Positions 16,140-24,894 of a DNA stretch of 64,000 bases are shown in pieces; the stretch's first letter is position 1; every line of letters begins with the position of its first letter. The notes beneath the pieces were generated by a model. The model saw only the letters and a list, made by a program, of their open reading frames with translations. It searched no databases and was not told the origin of the DNA. The position numbers and the translations under genes are program-made. This stretch comes from an uncultured Lachnospiraceae bacterium (lineage in GTDB: Bacteria; Bacillota; Clostridia; Lachnospirales; Lachnospiraceae): positions 1 through 64,000 of the forward strand of contig CATLGW010000004.1 of the NCBI GenBank assembly GCA_949948715.1, written 5' to 3'.

Positions 16140-17072
16140 CTAGAAATTCTTCTCCTGCGGTATATTCAGTTCTGTATAAATCAGATGAATCAGCGGTTGG
16201 GAAAAATCATAGTCCTTTTTCCACTGAGGGTTCAGGGCATCCAATATCATACATTGCGCCATTCCCGCCCTGTAATATTTATTTGAGCCTTCCCCGTATT
16301 CGCCGATATTATCGATATAATTGACTTTGAAGCTTTCGGGAGCCAGCCTGTAATATACGCTGGCCTCGATGTAACGGGCTGATCCCTCCACTCTTGTATA
16401 ATATTCTTCAAGAGCTGTTACGTCAATGGAAAGCAGTGCCCTTCTCTCACCGTCCAGCCTCTTATATTCTGCAATATACTCTCTTATTTTGTCAATATCA
16501 TCTGTCTTTACCGCGTTTTCAAGCAGAGCCGCCTGCTGCTCGAATAAACTGACCGCCTGCCGGTTTGTGTCGGCGTGTTCGACAATCAGATTTTCCGCCG
16601 CTTTCCCCTGCCAGAGGGCTTCTATGGGGCCGCGATAATTGGTAAGCTGCCAGCAGTGAAAGGCTTCGTGCCATAGGGTGGCGACACAATCTTCCCTTTC
16701 GTATTCCCAGCTTCCCCCGCTCATCATACCCAGAAACGACGACATTTTTTCAACGGTGGGCGAAAGAACTTCATAATGATCGTCCACGGAGTATGCCGTT
16801 GCGGCTATGGAATTTATGACGGGCCTTCGCCTTTCTATAAGGTAGCCGTTGTCTTTCCACCGGATCACATAATCGTGATCGCCGTCATAAAAGGCCACCG
16901 GGTAATCGGTTATGGCAAAACCCTCAAATCCAAAATTACCGTTTTCCTGCTCCAACGCTACCGCCTGCTCATATATAGCAATATTATCTTTTGAGAGACC
17001 GTAGCTGCCTGTGGCGATAACTCCCGCAGTAAGGGCGGCGCCTAAAAGAGATACAGCTATTTCTTTTTTCAT
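16140..17072 (-). CDS. Exported/membrane-anchored protein with HExxH zinc-protease-like motif
   Basis: MKKEIAVSLLGAALTAGVIATGSYG signal/anchor; CVATLWHEAFHCWQL HExxH; ORF trimmed to ATG at 17072. Confidence 0.7.
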   Translation of the reverse strand: MKKEIAVSLLGAALTAGVIATGSYGLSKDNIAIYEQAVALEQENGNFGFEGFAITDYPVAFYDGDHDYVIRWKDNGYLIERRRPVINSIAATAYSVDDHYEVLSPTVEKMSSFLGMMSGGSWEYEREDCVATLWHEAFHCWQLTNYRGPIEALWQGKAAENLIVEHADTNRQAVSLFEQQAALLENAVKTDDIDKIREYIAEYKRLDGERRALLSIDVTALEEYYTRVEGSARYIEASVYYRLAPESFKVNYIDNIGEYGEGSNKYYRAGMAQCMILDALNPQWKKDYDFSQPLIHLIYTELNIPQEKNF

Positions 17073-17190
17073 AATCGGTTTTCCTTTTTTGAGTTTCGCG
17101 TTTGCCCTTCCGGTACCTTGACAGACAGAACAAGGTCCGTCTGAAAGAACCATCCGGACCTTGTTCGGGCACTGTCCGGGCATCTGCTGT
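17073..17190 (-). promoter_or_regulatory. Structured leader element, divergent copy, upstream of the HExxH protein gene
   Basis: Minus strand reads ACAGCAGATGCCCGGACAGTGCCC...AAGGGCAAACGCGAAACTCAAAAAAGGAAAACCGATT-ATG; 11-bp perfect inner stem AACAAGGTCCG/CGGACCTTGTT. Confidence 0.65.
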
Positions 17191-18846: not shown

Positions 18847-21582
18847 ATGTTTGAAAAGAGTGGGATTCAGGATACCATACATAAATTACACAGCGACGGG
18901 GAGGCCGGGCTTTCGGCGCTGGAGGCGTCCAGGCGCCTTGCCGTAAACGGAAAGAATGAGCTGCGGGAGCCAAAGGGGAAGACGCCTCTGGAAAATTTTA
19001 TAGGGCAGCTTAACGACCCGCTGATCTATGTGCTTCTGGTGGCGGCTGTGGTGTCCGTATTTTTGAGGGAGATAAGCGATGCGGTCATCATCGGAGTGGT
19101 GGTGCTTGTGAACGCTTTGGTGGGGATGATTCAGGAGGGAAGGGCCAAGAAGGCCCTGGAGGCCTTAAAAAAGCTGACAAGCCCACAGACCACGGTGATC
19201 CGGGACGGGGTGCGCAGGGAAATTCCGGCATCGCAGCTTGTGACGGGAGACCTGGTGTGTCTGGAGGCGGGATGTCAGGTGCCCGCGGATCTGCGACTGA
19301 CCAGATCCGTCAATTTGAAGGTGGAGGAATCGGCCCTGACCGGAGAGACTCTGCCCGTGGAGAAGGACGCGCTGTTTCTGGCGGACTGTGCCAGGGAGAT
19401 TCCTCTGGGGGACAGGAGAAACATGGCCTATATGTCCACTATCGTCACCTATGGAAGAGGAGAGGGGATCGTCACCGCCGTGGGTATGAACACGGAGATC
19501 GGACGGATCGCCACTATGATCACGGAGTCCAAGGAGGAGATGACGCCTTTGCAGAAGCGCCTGGGAGAATTGGGCAAGGTGTTGAGCCTTTTGTCCCTGG
19601 CGCTGTGCGGAGCTCTGTTTTTCATCGCTGTGATACAGCAGAGGAATGCCCTGGAAATGCTGATCACCGCTCTGTCCCTGGCGGTGGCTGCGGTGCCGGA
19701 GGGGCTTCCGGCCGTGGTGACCATCTGCCTTGCCCTTTCCGTCACCAAGATGGTGAAGGTCAACACTATTGTGCGCCGTCTGCCCTCCGTGGAGACCCTG
19801 GGGGCGGTCAGCGTGGTGTGCTCCGACAAGACGGGCACCTTGACCCAGAACAGGATGTCGGTGGAAAGATGCTGGTGGGACGGCCGAATGGAGTCCCTGG
19901 GGGGACAGTGGTCGGAGGGCGCGGTGAAAGCGGCTCAAAAGTCGGAGATCGGCAGGGCTCTGGAGCACAGGGACTTTGTCCAGGGGCTGGTTCTGTGCAA
20001 TGACGCCTCTCTGGCTCAGGGTAGCCGCCTGGGTGACCCCACGGAGCTGGCGCTCTTGGATCTGGCGGCCCGGTTTGGCGTGGAGAAGGAAGGGCTGGAG
20101 ACCGCGCTGCCCCGCATGGGGGAGCTGCCCTTTGACTCGGACCGAAAGATGATGACCACCTGCCATATGCGTAAGGGGGAGCTGGCAGCCGCTCAGATTT
20201 CCCGGGAATGCGGGGGAGTGTCCTATACCAAGGGAGCGCCGGACGAGGTGCTGCGCAAATGCTGCTTTATCCGGATACGGGACAAAGTCCTGCCCATGAC
20301 GGAGCAGTACCGCAGACAGATCTTAAAGGCCGTGGAGGAGATGTCCTCGGAGGCGCTGCGGACTCTGGCGGTGGCTATGCGGGACCGGGTGAATTATCCC
20401 GTGGAGGAGCAGCTCACCTTTCTGGGGATGGTGGGAATGAGAGATCCCGCCAGGCCGGAGGCCGCGGAGGCTGTGGCCACCTTCAAGACGGCGGGAGTCA
20501 GCACGGTGATGATCACCGGAGATCATGTGGAGACCGCTTATGCCATCGGCAGGCAGCTTGGGATCGTGGATCATATGGGACAGTGCATGACCGGCAGTGA
20601 GCTGGGGATTTTGGGTGAGGAGGAGCTTAGGGAGCGGCTGGCTGACACCAGGGTTTTTGCCCGGGTGTCCCCCTCCCAGAAGGTCCGCATCGTGAAGGGA
20701 TTTAAGGATCGGGGACAGATTGTGGCCATGACGGGGGACGGCGTCAACGACGCGCCCTCCTTAAAGGCGGCGGATATCGGGATCGCCATGGGTATGACAG
20801 GCACGGATGTGGCGAAGCAGGCCTCCGACATGATTCTTACGGATGATAACTTTGCAACCATCGAGAAGGCCATCGAGGAGGGGCGGGGAGTCTATGAAAA
20901 TATACGCAAATCCGTGATATTCCTGCTGTCCTCCAATCTGGGAGAAATTTTGACCATGTTTTTGGCGGTGATCTGCGGGCTTGCCTCTCCTCTGAAATCC
21001 AGCCATATTTTATGGATTAACCTGATCACTGACACATTGCCGGCGCTGGCTCTGGGGATTGACAGAAACGACGGCAAAAGCCTGATGCAGAATGCTCCCA
21101 GAAAGTCGGATGAAAGCCTTTTTTCCAGGGGCGGGCTGGCGTGTACCTGCTTCTACGGGCTATTGATCGCGGGAATCAGTCTGGCTGCGTTTCTGATGCT
21201 GCCCTGCGCCTGGCTGAAGGTGCAGGAGCTGCCCGTGAATCTGGAGAACCTGGCCATGGTGCTGCGCCAGGATGTGCTGCTGTCCAAATCCCAGACCTAT
21301 GCTTTCACCCTGTTAGGGATGTCCCAGCTCTTTCATGCCATCGGCATGAGGGACACCCAGAAGTCGGTATTTCGCATGAACCACTGGGAGAACAAGCTGA
21401 TGCTTGCGGCGCTGGCGATGGGATTTGTCCTGCAGTTTGCGGTGACGGAGGTGCCCTTTTTGATCGACGCCTTCGGCACCTCCCATCTGTCCTGGCAGGA
21501 ATGGGGAAGGCTTGGGATTCTGGCGGCCTTTCCGCTGCTTGCCCATGAATGTATTGCGCTGCTGCAGAGAAGGCCGGGGTGA
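18847..21582 (+). CDS. Calcium-type P-type (P2) cation-transporting ATPase
   Basis: VCSDKTGTLTQNRM phosphorylation motif, TGDGVNDAPSLKAADIGIAMG hinge, 911 aa. Confidence 0.95.
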   Translation: MFEKSGIQDTIHKLHSDGEAGLSALEASRRLAVNGKNELREPKGKTPLENFIGQLNDPLIYVLLVAAVVSVFLREISDAVIIGVVVLVNALVGMIQEGRAKKALEALKKLTSPQTTVIRDGVRREIPASQLVTGDLVCLEAGCQVPADLRLTRSVNLKVEESALTGETLPVEKDALFLADCAREIPLGDRRNMAYMSTIVTYGRGEGIVTAVGMNTEIGRIATMITESKEEMTPLQKRLGELGKVLSLLSLALCGALFFIAVIQQRNALEMLITALSLAVAAVPEGLPAVVTICLALSVTKMVKVNTIVRRLPSVETLGAVSVVCSDKTGTLTQNRMSVERCWWDGRMESLGGQWSEGAVKAAQKSEIGRALEHRDFVQGLVLCNDASLAQGSRLGDPTELALLDLAARFGVEKEGLETALPRMGELPFDSDRKMMTTCHMRKGELAAAQISRECGGVSYTKGAPDEVLRKCCFIRIRDKVLPMTEQYRRQILKAVEEMSSEALRTLAVAMRDRVNYPVEEQLTFLGMVGMRDPARPEAAEAVATFKTAGVSTVMITGDHVETAYAIGRQLGIVDHMGQCMTGSELGILGEEELRERLADTRVFARVSPSQKVRIVKGFKDRGQIVAMTGDGVNDAPSLKAADIGIAMGMTGTDVAKQASDMILTDDNFATIEKAIEEGRGVYENIRKSVIFLLSSNLGEILTMFLAVICGLASPLKSSHILWINLITDTLPALALGIDRNDGKSLMQNAPRKSDESLFSRGGLACTCFYGLLIAGISLAAFLMLPCAWLKVQELPVNLENLAMVLRQDVLLSKSQTYAFTLLGMSQLFHAIGMRDTQKSVFRMNHWENKLMLAALAMGFVLQFAVTEVPFLIDAFGTSHLSWQEWGRLGILAAFPLLAHECIALLQRRPG

Positions 21583-21737: not shown

Positions 21738-22943
21738 ATGGAATCTATGCATTCTGAAAATAACAACACGGACAATCTGGAAATAGAGATTGAGAAGAAA
21801 AAGGCGGAGTTTCTTGGTATTGAATATGATACAGAGGCCGAAAACAGCGAAGAAGAACAGGAAAGCATGGAACAGCCCTTCAATGTTGATAAGATAAGAG
21901 TTGACCAGCAAATGCTGTCCGTCAAATATATGCTGGAATTGATGGAACAGGATCTGCTTGAGTTGAACCCGGGATATCAGAGGAGGAGAGTATGGACTGA
22001 TAACAAGCGCAAGTCTTTATTGATTGAATCTCTGATATTGCGTATTCCGATTCCGGCATTTTACTTTTATGAGAATAAGGACGGAAAGTTTCAGGTTATA
22101 GACGGCCAGCAAAGGCTTGCAACCATAAAGGAATTTGTCAATGGTGATTTCAAGCTGACAGGACTGGAATATCTGGGGGCGGATTGCAACAAAAAGCGGT
22201 TCTCTGACTTGGAACAGAAATATATCCAGAGAATATACAGGACGCAGATTGCCGTCAATATTCTTGATGCCAGGTCTCCCAAAAAGGTGATTTATGAAAT
22301 TTTCCGTCGGGTGAATACCGGCGGTATGAATTTAAATCCGCAGGAAATGCGAAATGCGATTTGCAGACAGGAAGTGCGGGATTTTTTGGTCCGGAGCACA
22401 TGGAATCAAAATTATTTAATAGCCACCAGGAGAAGGGTAAAGGACGACAGGATGGATGCCCAGGAGCTGGTTTTGCGGTTTTACGCTTTTTATATGGCTT
22501 ACGATTTTGAGAGGGAAGAATTGCAGTATAATTCTCCCAATATAGCTGAAATGCTGGATGCGGCGATTGAAAAATTGAATGATATGCCGCCGGAAGAGAG
22601 AGAGAAGCTGTATAAAATCTTCGACACGGCCATGGAGCGGGCTTATGAGGCCTTTGGAAAATATGCCTTTTCAAAGATATACCGATCAGGCGGCGAGATA
22701 ATGAGAAACATGGATTATATCAACAAATCTTTGTTTTCTTCCTTTTCCGTTCTTTTGGCTCATTCCAAATATGACGGCGTGAAAATCGAGGAATGCCGGG
22801 ATCAATTATTGTATACATTGGCGGATGCATTGCAGAACTATTACTACACCAACTCTATAACAATCGGCACGGGAGACCGGCGGAATGTGTATGCAAACTT
22901 TGGATATTCCAGGGAGGTATTGGAGAAATGCCTGGTGCAATGA
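21738..22943 (+). CDS. DUF262-domain protein (ParB/Srx-like fold, GmrSD-N type, no HNH/DUF1524 seen)
   Basis: DLLELNPGYQRRRVWTDNKRKSLLIESLILRIPIPAFYFYENKDGKFQVIDGQQRLATIKEF; DGQQRL motif intact. Confidence 0.88.
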   Translation: MESMHSENNNTDNLEIEIEKKKAEFLGIEYDTEAENSEEEQESMEQPFNVDKIRVDQQMLSVKYMLELMEQDLLELNPGYQRRRVWTDNKRKSLLIESLILRIPIPAFYFYENKDGKFQVIDGQQRLATIKEFVNGDFKLTGLEYLGADCNKKRFSDLEQKYIQRIYRTQIAVNILDARSPKKVIYEIFRRVNTGGMNLNPQEMRNAICRQEVRDFLVRSTWNQNYLIATRRRVKDDRMDAQELVLRFYAFYMAYDFEREELQYNSPNIAEMLDAAIEKLNDMPPEEREKLYKIFDTAMERAYEAFGKYAFSKIYRSGGEIMRNMDYINKSLFSSFSVLLAHSKYDGVKIEECRDQLLYTLADALQNYYYTNSITIGTGDRRNVYANFGYSREVLEKCLVQ

Positions 22944-24052
22944 TCGATAAGATAGTATTGAAAAATTTCAAATGCCATAAAGATTTCGAGGCACAGATGC
23001 GTAATTTGAATATATTGACAGGGAGCAACGCTTCGGGTAAATCCAGTCTGGTACAGGCGGTGCTGCTGGCATTTAAAGGCTGGGAAAGCAGTGAAAAGAG
23101 GCAGGTGAGCACTAATAAGGTGTTTGGTGTGAATCTTGGTATTCCTATCAATATTGTGTCGGAGGAACTGGAACAGAAAGATATTGAGATCGGGCTGTTC
23201 ATGGAAGGGATTGAAAACAGGATTGTTTTGGACCTTCCGGAGGATAATGAGGAAATCTATTTGAACATCCGCAATTATGAGGAGATTGTGGAACAAAAGA
23301 CGCTTCGCAGAAATTTGGACAAAATACGCCTTTTCTTTTTGAACGCGGAACGGCAGGGTCCCCGAATCGTTTCCTTTATTCGGGAGGAGATGCCGTTTTC
23401 GGTAGGTACAGCCGGGGAGAATACAGGATTTATATTGAGCGAGATGGACAAAAACCAAAAGCGGAAAGGCGGACTCCGGCTGCCTGAGGCACTGAAAATT
23501 TCTGATATTGACAGGTTTTCGGCTAATTGCGAGGCTTGGCTTAATTTAATTGTTCCCGAAACAAGACTGCGGTACAGTGTGGATTTGGAAAAGAATTTTA
23601 CCACGCTTATGATGCAGAATCAGGGTGAATTTCATTTACCTGTGGCGACAGGGTTTGGTATCTCTTATGTGCTGCCTGTTGTGGTACAGGCGTTAGCGGC
23701 CAGTGCTGTCGGAGATTCTTTGCTGATCATTGAAAATCCGGAAGCGCATTTACACCCTTTAAGCCAGTCAAGACTTGGAAAATTTTTGTCACTGGTTGGG
23801 GCAAACGGAGTTCAAATCATTTTGGAAACGCACAGTGAGCATATTATAGACGGCTGTCGGATTCAGGCTGCTAAAGAAAAGCAATGTGAGAATATGCAGA
23901 TCCTGTTTTTTGAGAAGAAAGACAATGACAGTGTATGCTCACAGATTAAGATACAGGAAAACGGCGAGCTGGAGACTTGGCCCGAAGGATTTTTTGATCA
24001 GAAACGGTTGGATTTACGAGAGTTGCTGGAGATAAGAAGATGTGGAAATTAG
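22928..24052 (+). CDS. AAA/ABC-class ATPase (RecF/OLD-like, DUF3696-type)
   Basis: LKNFKCHKDFEAQMRNLNILTGSNASGKSSLVQAVLLAF, LLIIENPEAHLHP Walker B, ETHSEHIIDG; overlaps upstream stop (start 22928 or ATGA at 22940). Confidence 0.88.
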   Translation: MPGAMIDKIVLKNFKCHKDFEAQMRNLNILTGSNASGKSSLVQAVLLAFKGWESSEKRQVSTNKVFGVNLGIPINIVSEELEQKDIEIGLFMEGIENRIVLDLPEDNEEIYLNIRNYEEIVEQKTLRRNLDKIRLFFLNAERQGPRIVSFIREEMPFSVGTAGENTGFILSEMDKNQKRKGGLRLPEALKISDIDRFSANCEAWLNLIVPETRLRYSVDLEKNFTTLMMQNQGEFHLPVATGFGISYVLPVVVQALAASAVGDSLLIIENPEAHLHPLSQSRLGKFLSLVGANGVQIILETHSEHIIDGCRIQAAKEKQCENMQILFFEKKDNDSVCSQIKIQENGELETWPEGFFDQKRLDLRELLEIRRCGN

Positions 24053-24894
24053 ATTTCTATGTATTGCCGCCCGATCGATACGGGGACCTGAATGATGACA
24101 TTATCCTTGATTTTGATGAAAAGGCAAGATATTTAAGTGAAAGGGAAAATCTATATGTTCCGGATTCGATATTTTCCCAGGAGGACAGGGACGGTTTAAC
24201 TCTGGAGGATTTCCTTTTTGTGAATGAGCAAAGCGACAGTTCGGCCTTGCTTAGGGAAATAATTTTGAAGCAGAGAATGTGCTCCGATACATATGATGAA
24301 ATAGAGGAAAAAGCGGAATACGGGTATTTGCCTGTGAGCACTGTCGACATACCGGAAGAAACCGCACCTTTATGCGTTGGAAGAGTCAGGGATATCGAAG
24401 AAGAAAAATGCAGGAAGGTCAATGATGTGGTAAGGATAAAGCGCTTGTATATTGTAAGCACAGATAACTATAGTGTTTATGAAGACAGGGCGAGAGTCTG
24501 CTACCCTGATCTTTTTTTTCATGATGACGCTTTTTTGTATGCTTCCGAGATGGGGAGTTGTATGGATATGGCGGAAGAATTGTCAAGACACCTGGCTGCA
24601 CTGAATGATGCTGGCAGAAGCTTATATTTATATTATGGTCAGAATGAAAAGTCCGCATTATCAGAGCTTAAAGCAAAATATAAGATAGAATGTTCGGGAA
24701 AGGGCTCTAATGAAGGAGAGAGCTACAATAAGGAGATCACATATGGAAAACAGTCCTATCAATTGACTTGCAATCCTCATACAAAGCTTCATGGCAAGAG
24801 AACGGATGAACGGATTTATTTCTGTTGGGGACGCATCGAAATTGAAAGCCACAAAATTATAATTGTGCGCATTGGCGGACATTGGAAAAAATAA
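24040..24894 (+). CDS. Protein of unknown function, third gene of DUF262-ATPase cassette
   Basis: 284 aa, ATG overlaps ATPase stop by 13 bp; C-terminus NPHTKLHGKRTDERIYFCWGRIEIESHKIIIVRIGGHWKK. Confidence 0.8.
   Translation: MWKLDFYVLPPDRYGDLNDDIILDFDEKARYLSERENLYVPDSIFSQEDRDGLTLEDFLFVNEQSDSSALLREIILKQRMCSDTYDEIEEKAEYGYLPVSTVDIPEETAPLCVGRVRDIEEEKCRKVNDVVRIKRLYIVSTDNYSVYEDRARVCYPDLFFHDDAFLYASEMGSCMDMAEELSRHLAALNDAGRSLYLYYGQNEKSALSELKAKYKIECSGKGSNEGESYNKEITYGKQSYQLTCNPHTKLHGKRTDERIYFCWGRIEIESHKIIIVRIGGHWKK

What the first reader, a model, noticed from the sequence alone, without database searches (positions are those of the whole stretch)
21738..24894. Three-gene DUF262 - AAA ATPase - unknown cassette: candidate anti-phage or genome-defence system
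Genes are translationally coupled (ATGA/16-bp overlap at 22928-22943, 13-bp overlap at 24040-24052), visibly more AT-rich than flanking genes, and inserted between housekeeping genes (P-type ATPase and trpS). DUF262 is the N-terminal domain of GmrSD-type restriction enzymes, and OLD/RecF-like ATPases pair with nucleases in Septu, Gabija and retron systems. Here DUF262 lacks the usual HNH/DUF1524 partner, so the third protein may be the effector.
Basis: partly seen in the sequence, partly recalled or inferred. Interest (0 to 1): 0.7.

Follow-up and report, generated by a model that had tools for sequence, protein, structure and literature searches.

The report
Menshen anti-phage defence operon (nsnABC)
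This three-gene cassette in a gut Lachnospiraceae genome is a copy of the already described Menshen anti-phage system, whose third gene is most likely a swappable toxin that shuts the infected cell down; it is an ordinary but well-preserved member of a known family.

Summary
In detail: three overlapping, AT-rich genes at 21738-24894, set between a P-type ATPase and trpS. At least 11 congeners have those two neighbours side by side without the cassette. It is not a new system. All three proteins match PADLOC's NsnA, NsnB and NsnC profiles (1e-107, 8e-88, 9e-46), in the order nsnA-nsnB-nsnC. These are, to my knowledge, the Menshen genes of Millman 2022; a review confirms that Menshen pairs DUF262 with an OLD-type partner and that its DUF262 gene is needed for defence. 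Among the 80 closest NsnA loci in GTDB genomes, 78 have NsnB next door and about 76 a third gene. Flanks of the nearest ones carry Gabija, Septu, BREX/Pgl, Dazbog or restriction-modification genes. An AlphaFold model of that domain (pLDDT 94.5) resembles YoeB only weakly (TM 0.51, E 0.6, not significant). Effector polymorphism is already reflected in PADLOC's many NsnC profiles, a 2025 NAR title, and a 2025 mBio paper (ptuXYZ). Low novelty.

The parts
21738..22943 (+). nsnA: DUF262 (GmrSD_N, ParB/Srx-like NTPase) protein, 401 aa; QR (Q81 R82), DGQQR (122-126) and FxxxN (F189-N193) motifs intact; no DUF1524
   Evidence: PADLOC NsnA 1.3e-107 over 11-398; Pfam PF03235 2.3e-24; motif residues invariant in 13 relatives except Q124, the x of DGxQR
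22928..24052 (+). nsnB: ABC/OLD-RecF-like ATPase with DUF3696 C-terminus, 374 aa; Walker A GSNASGKS (32-39), Walker B/D-loop ENPEAHLHP (269-277), H-loop ETHSEH (300-305); no TOPRIM domain found
   Evidence: PADLOC NsnB 7.9e-88; Pfam AAA_15 1.9e-22, DUF3696 1.3e-12; motifs invariant in 13 relatives and in nearly all of the 78 further NsnB proteins
24040..24480 (+). nsnC, N-terminal part (residues 1-147): alpha/beta domain with few conserved residues; presumed regulatory/docking part
   Evidence: AlphaFold model pLDDT about 95; no residue likely to be catalytic is conserved at 70% or more here except K77 and R135
24481..24894 (+). nsnC, C-terminal part (residues 148-284): presumed toxin/effector domain with invariant H247, K249, R258, F261, H281
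   Evidence: PADLOC NsnC 8.7e-46; 45-member alignment; model pLDDT 94.5; same position holds YoeB (PF06769) or DUF4160 in other nsnC genes

Best explanation
The cassette is a Menshen (nsnABC) anti-phage operon, horizontally acquired between the P-type ATPase and trpS genes of a Lachnospiraceae bacterium (probably GTDB genus Acetatifactor). Shown: three full-length proteins with intact motifs, family membership, conserved gene order, defence-rich flanks of relatives, and exchange of the C-terminus of NsnC. Inferred: NsnA (DUF262, NTP-binding) and NsnB (ABC-type ATPase dimer) form a sensor/switch that recognises phage DNA or an infection-linked structure and holds NsnC inactive; on infection, nucleotide turnover frees or activates NsnC's C-terminal domain, most likely a nuclease of the RelE/YoeB (BECR) type acting on RNA, which stops translation and phage growth. 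Likelihoods: Menshen membership 0.97; NsnC is the effector 0.85; the effector is a BECR-type RNase 0.5.
For: PADLOC profiles NsnA/NsnB/NsnC match full length or nearly so. The trio in the same order and mostly overlapping occurs in 78/80 (A+B) and about 76/80 (A+B+third gene) of the closest NsnA loci, from Lachnospiraceae to Bacteroidota, Actinomycetota and archaea. Flanks of relatives contain GajA/GajB, PtuA, PglX/PglZ, DzbA, type III and IIG restriction-modification, MADS and Tn7-like genes. Mariano and Blower (PMC10952713) state that Menshen has a DUF262 protein with a predicted OLD nuclease partner, no DUF1524, and that loss of the DUF262 gene abolishes phage resistance. NsnC C-termini differ between loci: YoeB PF06769 (8e-18) in L120, L137, L109 and DUF4160 in L056. 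PADLOC needs some 40 NsnC profiles. Invariant H247/K249/R258/H281 in the window type. PMC11980606 predicts the same architecture with PIN-like plus YoeB-like PtuZ.
Against: No phage or toxicity data for this locus. The window's effector domain has no significant sequence match to YoeB (hhalign probability 0.6%) and no Foldseek hit at E<=0.001; YoeB is rank 2 with E 0.6, TM 0.51 by target and 0.36 by query. NsnC could be structural, with cleavage done by another protein. 'Nsn = Menshen' is my knowledge of the PADLOC/DefenseFinder gene names; no text read here spells it out.
Confidence: 0.8

Rival explanations
1. Same system, but NsnC's C-terminal domain acts on DNA (nuclease or nickase) or on another target rather than being a RelE/YoeB-like RNase; the shared end of the protein is only superficially like YoeB.
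For: No significant fold or profile match of the window domain to any solved RNase; invariant H-x-K, R and H residues fit several nuclease chemistries.
Against: Other nsnC genes carry bona fide YoeB at the same position; strand order beta-alpha-alpha-beta(n) in the model is the RelE-type order; the one topical Foldseek hit is YoeB.
Confidence: 0.35
2. A GmrSD-like type IV restriction system: NsnA recognises and cuts modified phage DNA, with NsnB and NsnC as accessories.
For: DUF262 with QR, DGQQR and FxxxN motifs, the motif set listed for GmrSD-type enzymes in PMC12137116.
Against: No DUF1524 or other nuclease domain in NsnA, DHxxP-like motif in only 1 of about 80 NsnA; NsnC is under diversifying exchange as effectors are.
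Confidence: 0.07
3. A hitherto undescribed defence system.
For: No Pfam or NCBIfam name for protein 3.
Against: All three PADLOC Nsn profiles match, in order.
Confidence: 0.02

Closest known systems
Menshen (nsnA-nsnB-nsnC; Millman et al. 2022, cited in PMC10952713; Li et al. 2025 NAR gkaf357, not held)
   Same: Same three proteins by profile, same order, same domains (DUF262; OLD-like ATPase; variable third protein), same lack of DUF1524.
   Different: This NsnC belongs to one of many effector types; PDLC03899 is its best profile, matching residues 33-282. No TOPRIM domain was found in this NsnB, although the review speaks of a predicted OLD nuclease.
ptuXYZ (PMC11980606, mBio 2025)
   Same: Three-gene order DUF262 without DUF1524, PtuA-like ATPase, two-domain third protein with C-terminal toxin fold. 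The YoeB-ended relatives found here (L120, L137, L109) fit its description; L120 genes 1 and 2 match NsnA (4.3e-112) and NsnB (1.1e-99). The paper does not mention Menshen.
   Different: The window's C-terminal domain does not match the YoeB family by sequence.
GmrSD / BrxU / SspE / GrwAB
   Same: DUF262 NTPase domain with the same motifs.
   Different: Those carry a DUF1524 His-Me nuclease; here a separate ATPase and third protein take its place.
PARIS (AriA/AriB), Gabija, Septu, retron-ATPase effectors
   Same: NsnB shares the OLD/ABC-type ATPase (AriA 1.4e-25, GajA 1.8e-17).
   Different: Much weaker than the NsnB match; no AriB, GajB or PtuB partner.

Membership tests
Menshen | NsnA: DUF262 protein without DUF1524 | tested here: met
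   NsnA profile 1.3e-107; PF03235 2.3e-24; no other Pfam domain above cut-off
Menshen | NsnB: OLD/ABC-type ATPase | tested here: met
   NsnB profile 7.9e-88, intact Walker A/B and H-loop
Menshen | NsnC: variable third protein | tested here: met
   NsnC profile PDLC03899 8.7e-46, two further NsnC profiles match
Menshen | Adjacent genes in the order A-B-C | tested here: met
   Overlapping ORFs 21738-24894; same order in relatives
Menshen | Protects against phage | not testable with these tools
   Needs a plaque assay
GmrSD type IV restriction | DUF262 plus DUF1524 His-Me nuclease | tested here: not met
   No DUF1524 in any of the three proteins
Septu / Gabija / PARIS | Cognate partner PtuB, GajB or AriB | tested here: not met
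   Neither protein 1 nor protein 3 matches these partners
RelE/YoeB (BECR) toxin, for the NsnC C-terminal domain | Sequence-profile homology to YoeB | tested here: not met
   hhalign probability 0.6%
RelE/YoeB (BECR) toxin, for the NsnC C-terminal domain | RelE-like fold | tested here: inconclusive
   Order beta-alpha-alpha-beta strands in model; YoeB rank 2 in Foldseek but E 0.6, TM 0.51 by target

The most novel reading that the evidence does not exclude
The window's NsnC ends in a highly diverged RelE/YoeB-fold RNase with its own active site (H-x-K ... R ... G-x-H), outside all Pfam families, used as an infection-triggered effector under control of a DUF262-ABC ATPase pair; and the 'ptuXYZ' loci named in 2025 are the same system as Menshen.
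Probability: 0.45. Interest if true: 0.35.

Novelty: new member of a known kind. Interest (0 to 1): 0.17.

Why it matters
It removes a candidate from the list of possible new systems. It adds a clean, chromosomally inserted Menshen copy with intact motifs and empty-site congeners, and names the four residues of NsnC to mutate first. It also suggests that current PADLOC profiles can miss Menshen effectors that end in YoeB.

Tried and rejected
NsnC as query against genome contigs: no relative found with one sequence, and the 8-member alignment was too diverged to search with; solved by searching with NsnA instead. No NsnC match in plasmids or phages. Full-length NsnC model against PDB and viral structures: no hit at E<=0.001, only scattered low-TM hits. 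NsnC against PDB by sequence: nothing credible. YoeB profile comparison failed. A type IV restriction reading was rejected for lack of DUF1524. The main mechanistic paper on Menshen (PMC12065111) and Millman 2022 are not held; only the former's title was seen, in reference lists.

Full report
Observation. Three same-strand ORFs at 21738-22943, 22928-24052 and 24040-24894 encode 401, 374 and 284 aa and overlap by 16 and 13 bp. Their GC (0.41-0.46) is well below the immediate neighbours: a P-type ATPase at 18847-21582 and trpS from 25092. The contrast is real but not unique, since the two-component/ABC region at 15-18.7 kb is also fairly AT-rich. In at least 11 genomes of the same genus the P-type ATPase gene is followed directly by trpS with a short intergenic gap, so the cassette is an insertion in this lineage.

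Identity. Protein 1 carries only DUF262/GmrSD_N; protein 2 is an AAA_15/AAA_21 ATPase with a DUF3696 tail; protein 3 has no Pfam or NCBIfam match. Against PADLOC-DB the best matches are NsnA (1.3e-107, residues 11-398), NsnB (7.9e-88, 5-368) and NsnC (8.7e-46, 33-282), each far ahead of its runner-up from another system. To my knowledge NsnA/B/C are the PADLOC and DefenseFinder names of the Menshen genes. A review (PMC10952713) describes Menshen as DUF262 plus a predicted OLD nuclease, without DUF1524, and reports that mutating or deleting the DUF262 gene abolishes defence.

Neighbourhood. A search with an NsnA alignment in one-per-species GTDB genomes gave 344 relatives; the best 80 were read. 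An NsnB gene lies next to nsnA in 78 and a third ORF follows in about 76; the exceptions include contig ends, and a few third ORFs are doubtful. They span Lachnospiraceae (up to 74% identity), Bacillales, Actinomycetota, Bacteroidota, Pseudomonadota and Methanosarcinales. Of 85 flanking proteins from the nearest loci, matches include GajA, GajB, PtuA, PglX, PglZ, DzbA, type III and IIG restriction-modification, MADS and Tn7-like TnsD/TnsE. That is a defence and mobile-element context. Within a 391-genome sample of the class, the window's NsnC profile rang in only 4 genomes, two of them at E 9e-4, and in the closest relatives in 4 of 61: sporadic, as for a horizontally moved system.

Motifs. 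NsnA keeps QR (81-82), DGQQR (122-126) and FxxxN (189-193), the three DUF262 motifs named in PMC12137116. NsnB keeps Walker A, Walker B/D-loop and H-loop, also found in nearly all of the 78 further NsnB proteins.

Protein 3 as effector. Third genes differ in their C-terminus between loci. In L120, L137 and L109 the last 80 residues are a YoeB toxin (PF06769, best 8.1e-18), and in L056 a DUF4160 domain. Others end in a different, NPKH...YHGF type (its resemblance to EndoU-type toxins is my reading by eye). PADLOC holds about 40 NsnC profiles. This is the pattern of polymorphic toxins. In the window's type, a 45-member alignment leaves six invariant residues: L185, H247, K249, R258, F261, H281. 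All but L185 lie in the C-terminal strands. The N-terminal part has no strictly conserved polar residue. AlphaFold gives a confident model of the whole protein (pLDDT 95.0) and of residues 148-284 alone (94.5), with strand-helix-helix-strands order as in RelE/YoeB. Foldseek places S. aureus YoeB second, but without significance (E 0.6, TM 0.51 by target), and sequence profiles do not connect the two. A RelE/YoeB-like RNase is therefore the leading but unproven reading.

Mechanism. Shown: architecture, motifs, effector exchange. Inferred: NsnA and NsnB sense infection through NTP-dependent DNA or structure recognition and restrain NsnC; activation releases its toxic C-terminal domain and arrests the infected cell. 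The 2025 mBio survey of RelE/ParE toxins (PMC11980606) predicts the same for 'ptuXYZ', with an inactive PIN-like N-terminus and a YoeB-like C-terminus in PtuZ. Those loci fit the description of the YoeB-ended Menshen loci seen here, whose first two genes match NsnA and NsnB (L120), although that paper does not mention Menshen.

Novelty. New member of a known kind. The effector polymorphism is implied by PADLOC's profiles and by the title of Li et al. [quoted passage not shown] paper not held).

Noticed in passing
L120:7329-8030, L137:6341-7027, L109:7201-7926: Third genes of Menshen-like operons end in a YoeB toxin; the L120 protein matches no PADLOC profile at E<=0.1, so annotation tools may miss such systems.
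   Followed up: partly
L062:6176-7296: nsnB is split into two frames in this close relative (frameshift or assembly error) while nsnA and nsnC are intact.
   Followed up: no
PMC11980606 versus L120: The 'ptuXYZ' locus proposed in 2025 as novel appears to be a Menshen variant: L120, which fits its description, matches NsnA 4.3e-112 and NsnB 1.1e-99.
   Followed up: partly
window 16140-17183, minus strand: ORF with an HExxH motif (WHEAFHCWQ), possibly a zinc peptidase, next to an ABC transporter and a response regulator.
   Followed up: no
L060-L083, flanks of the relatives: Flanks of Menshen relatives hold Gabija, Septu, BREX/Pgl, Dazbog and Tn7-like genes, while the window's own copy sits alone between housekeeping genes.
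   Followed up: partly
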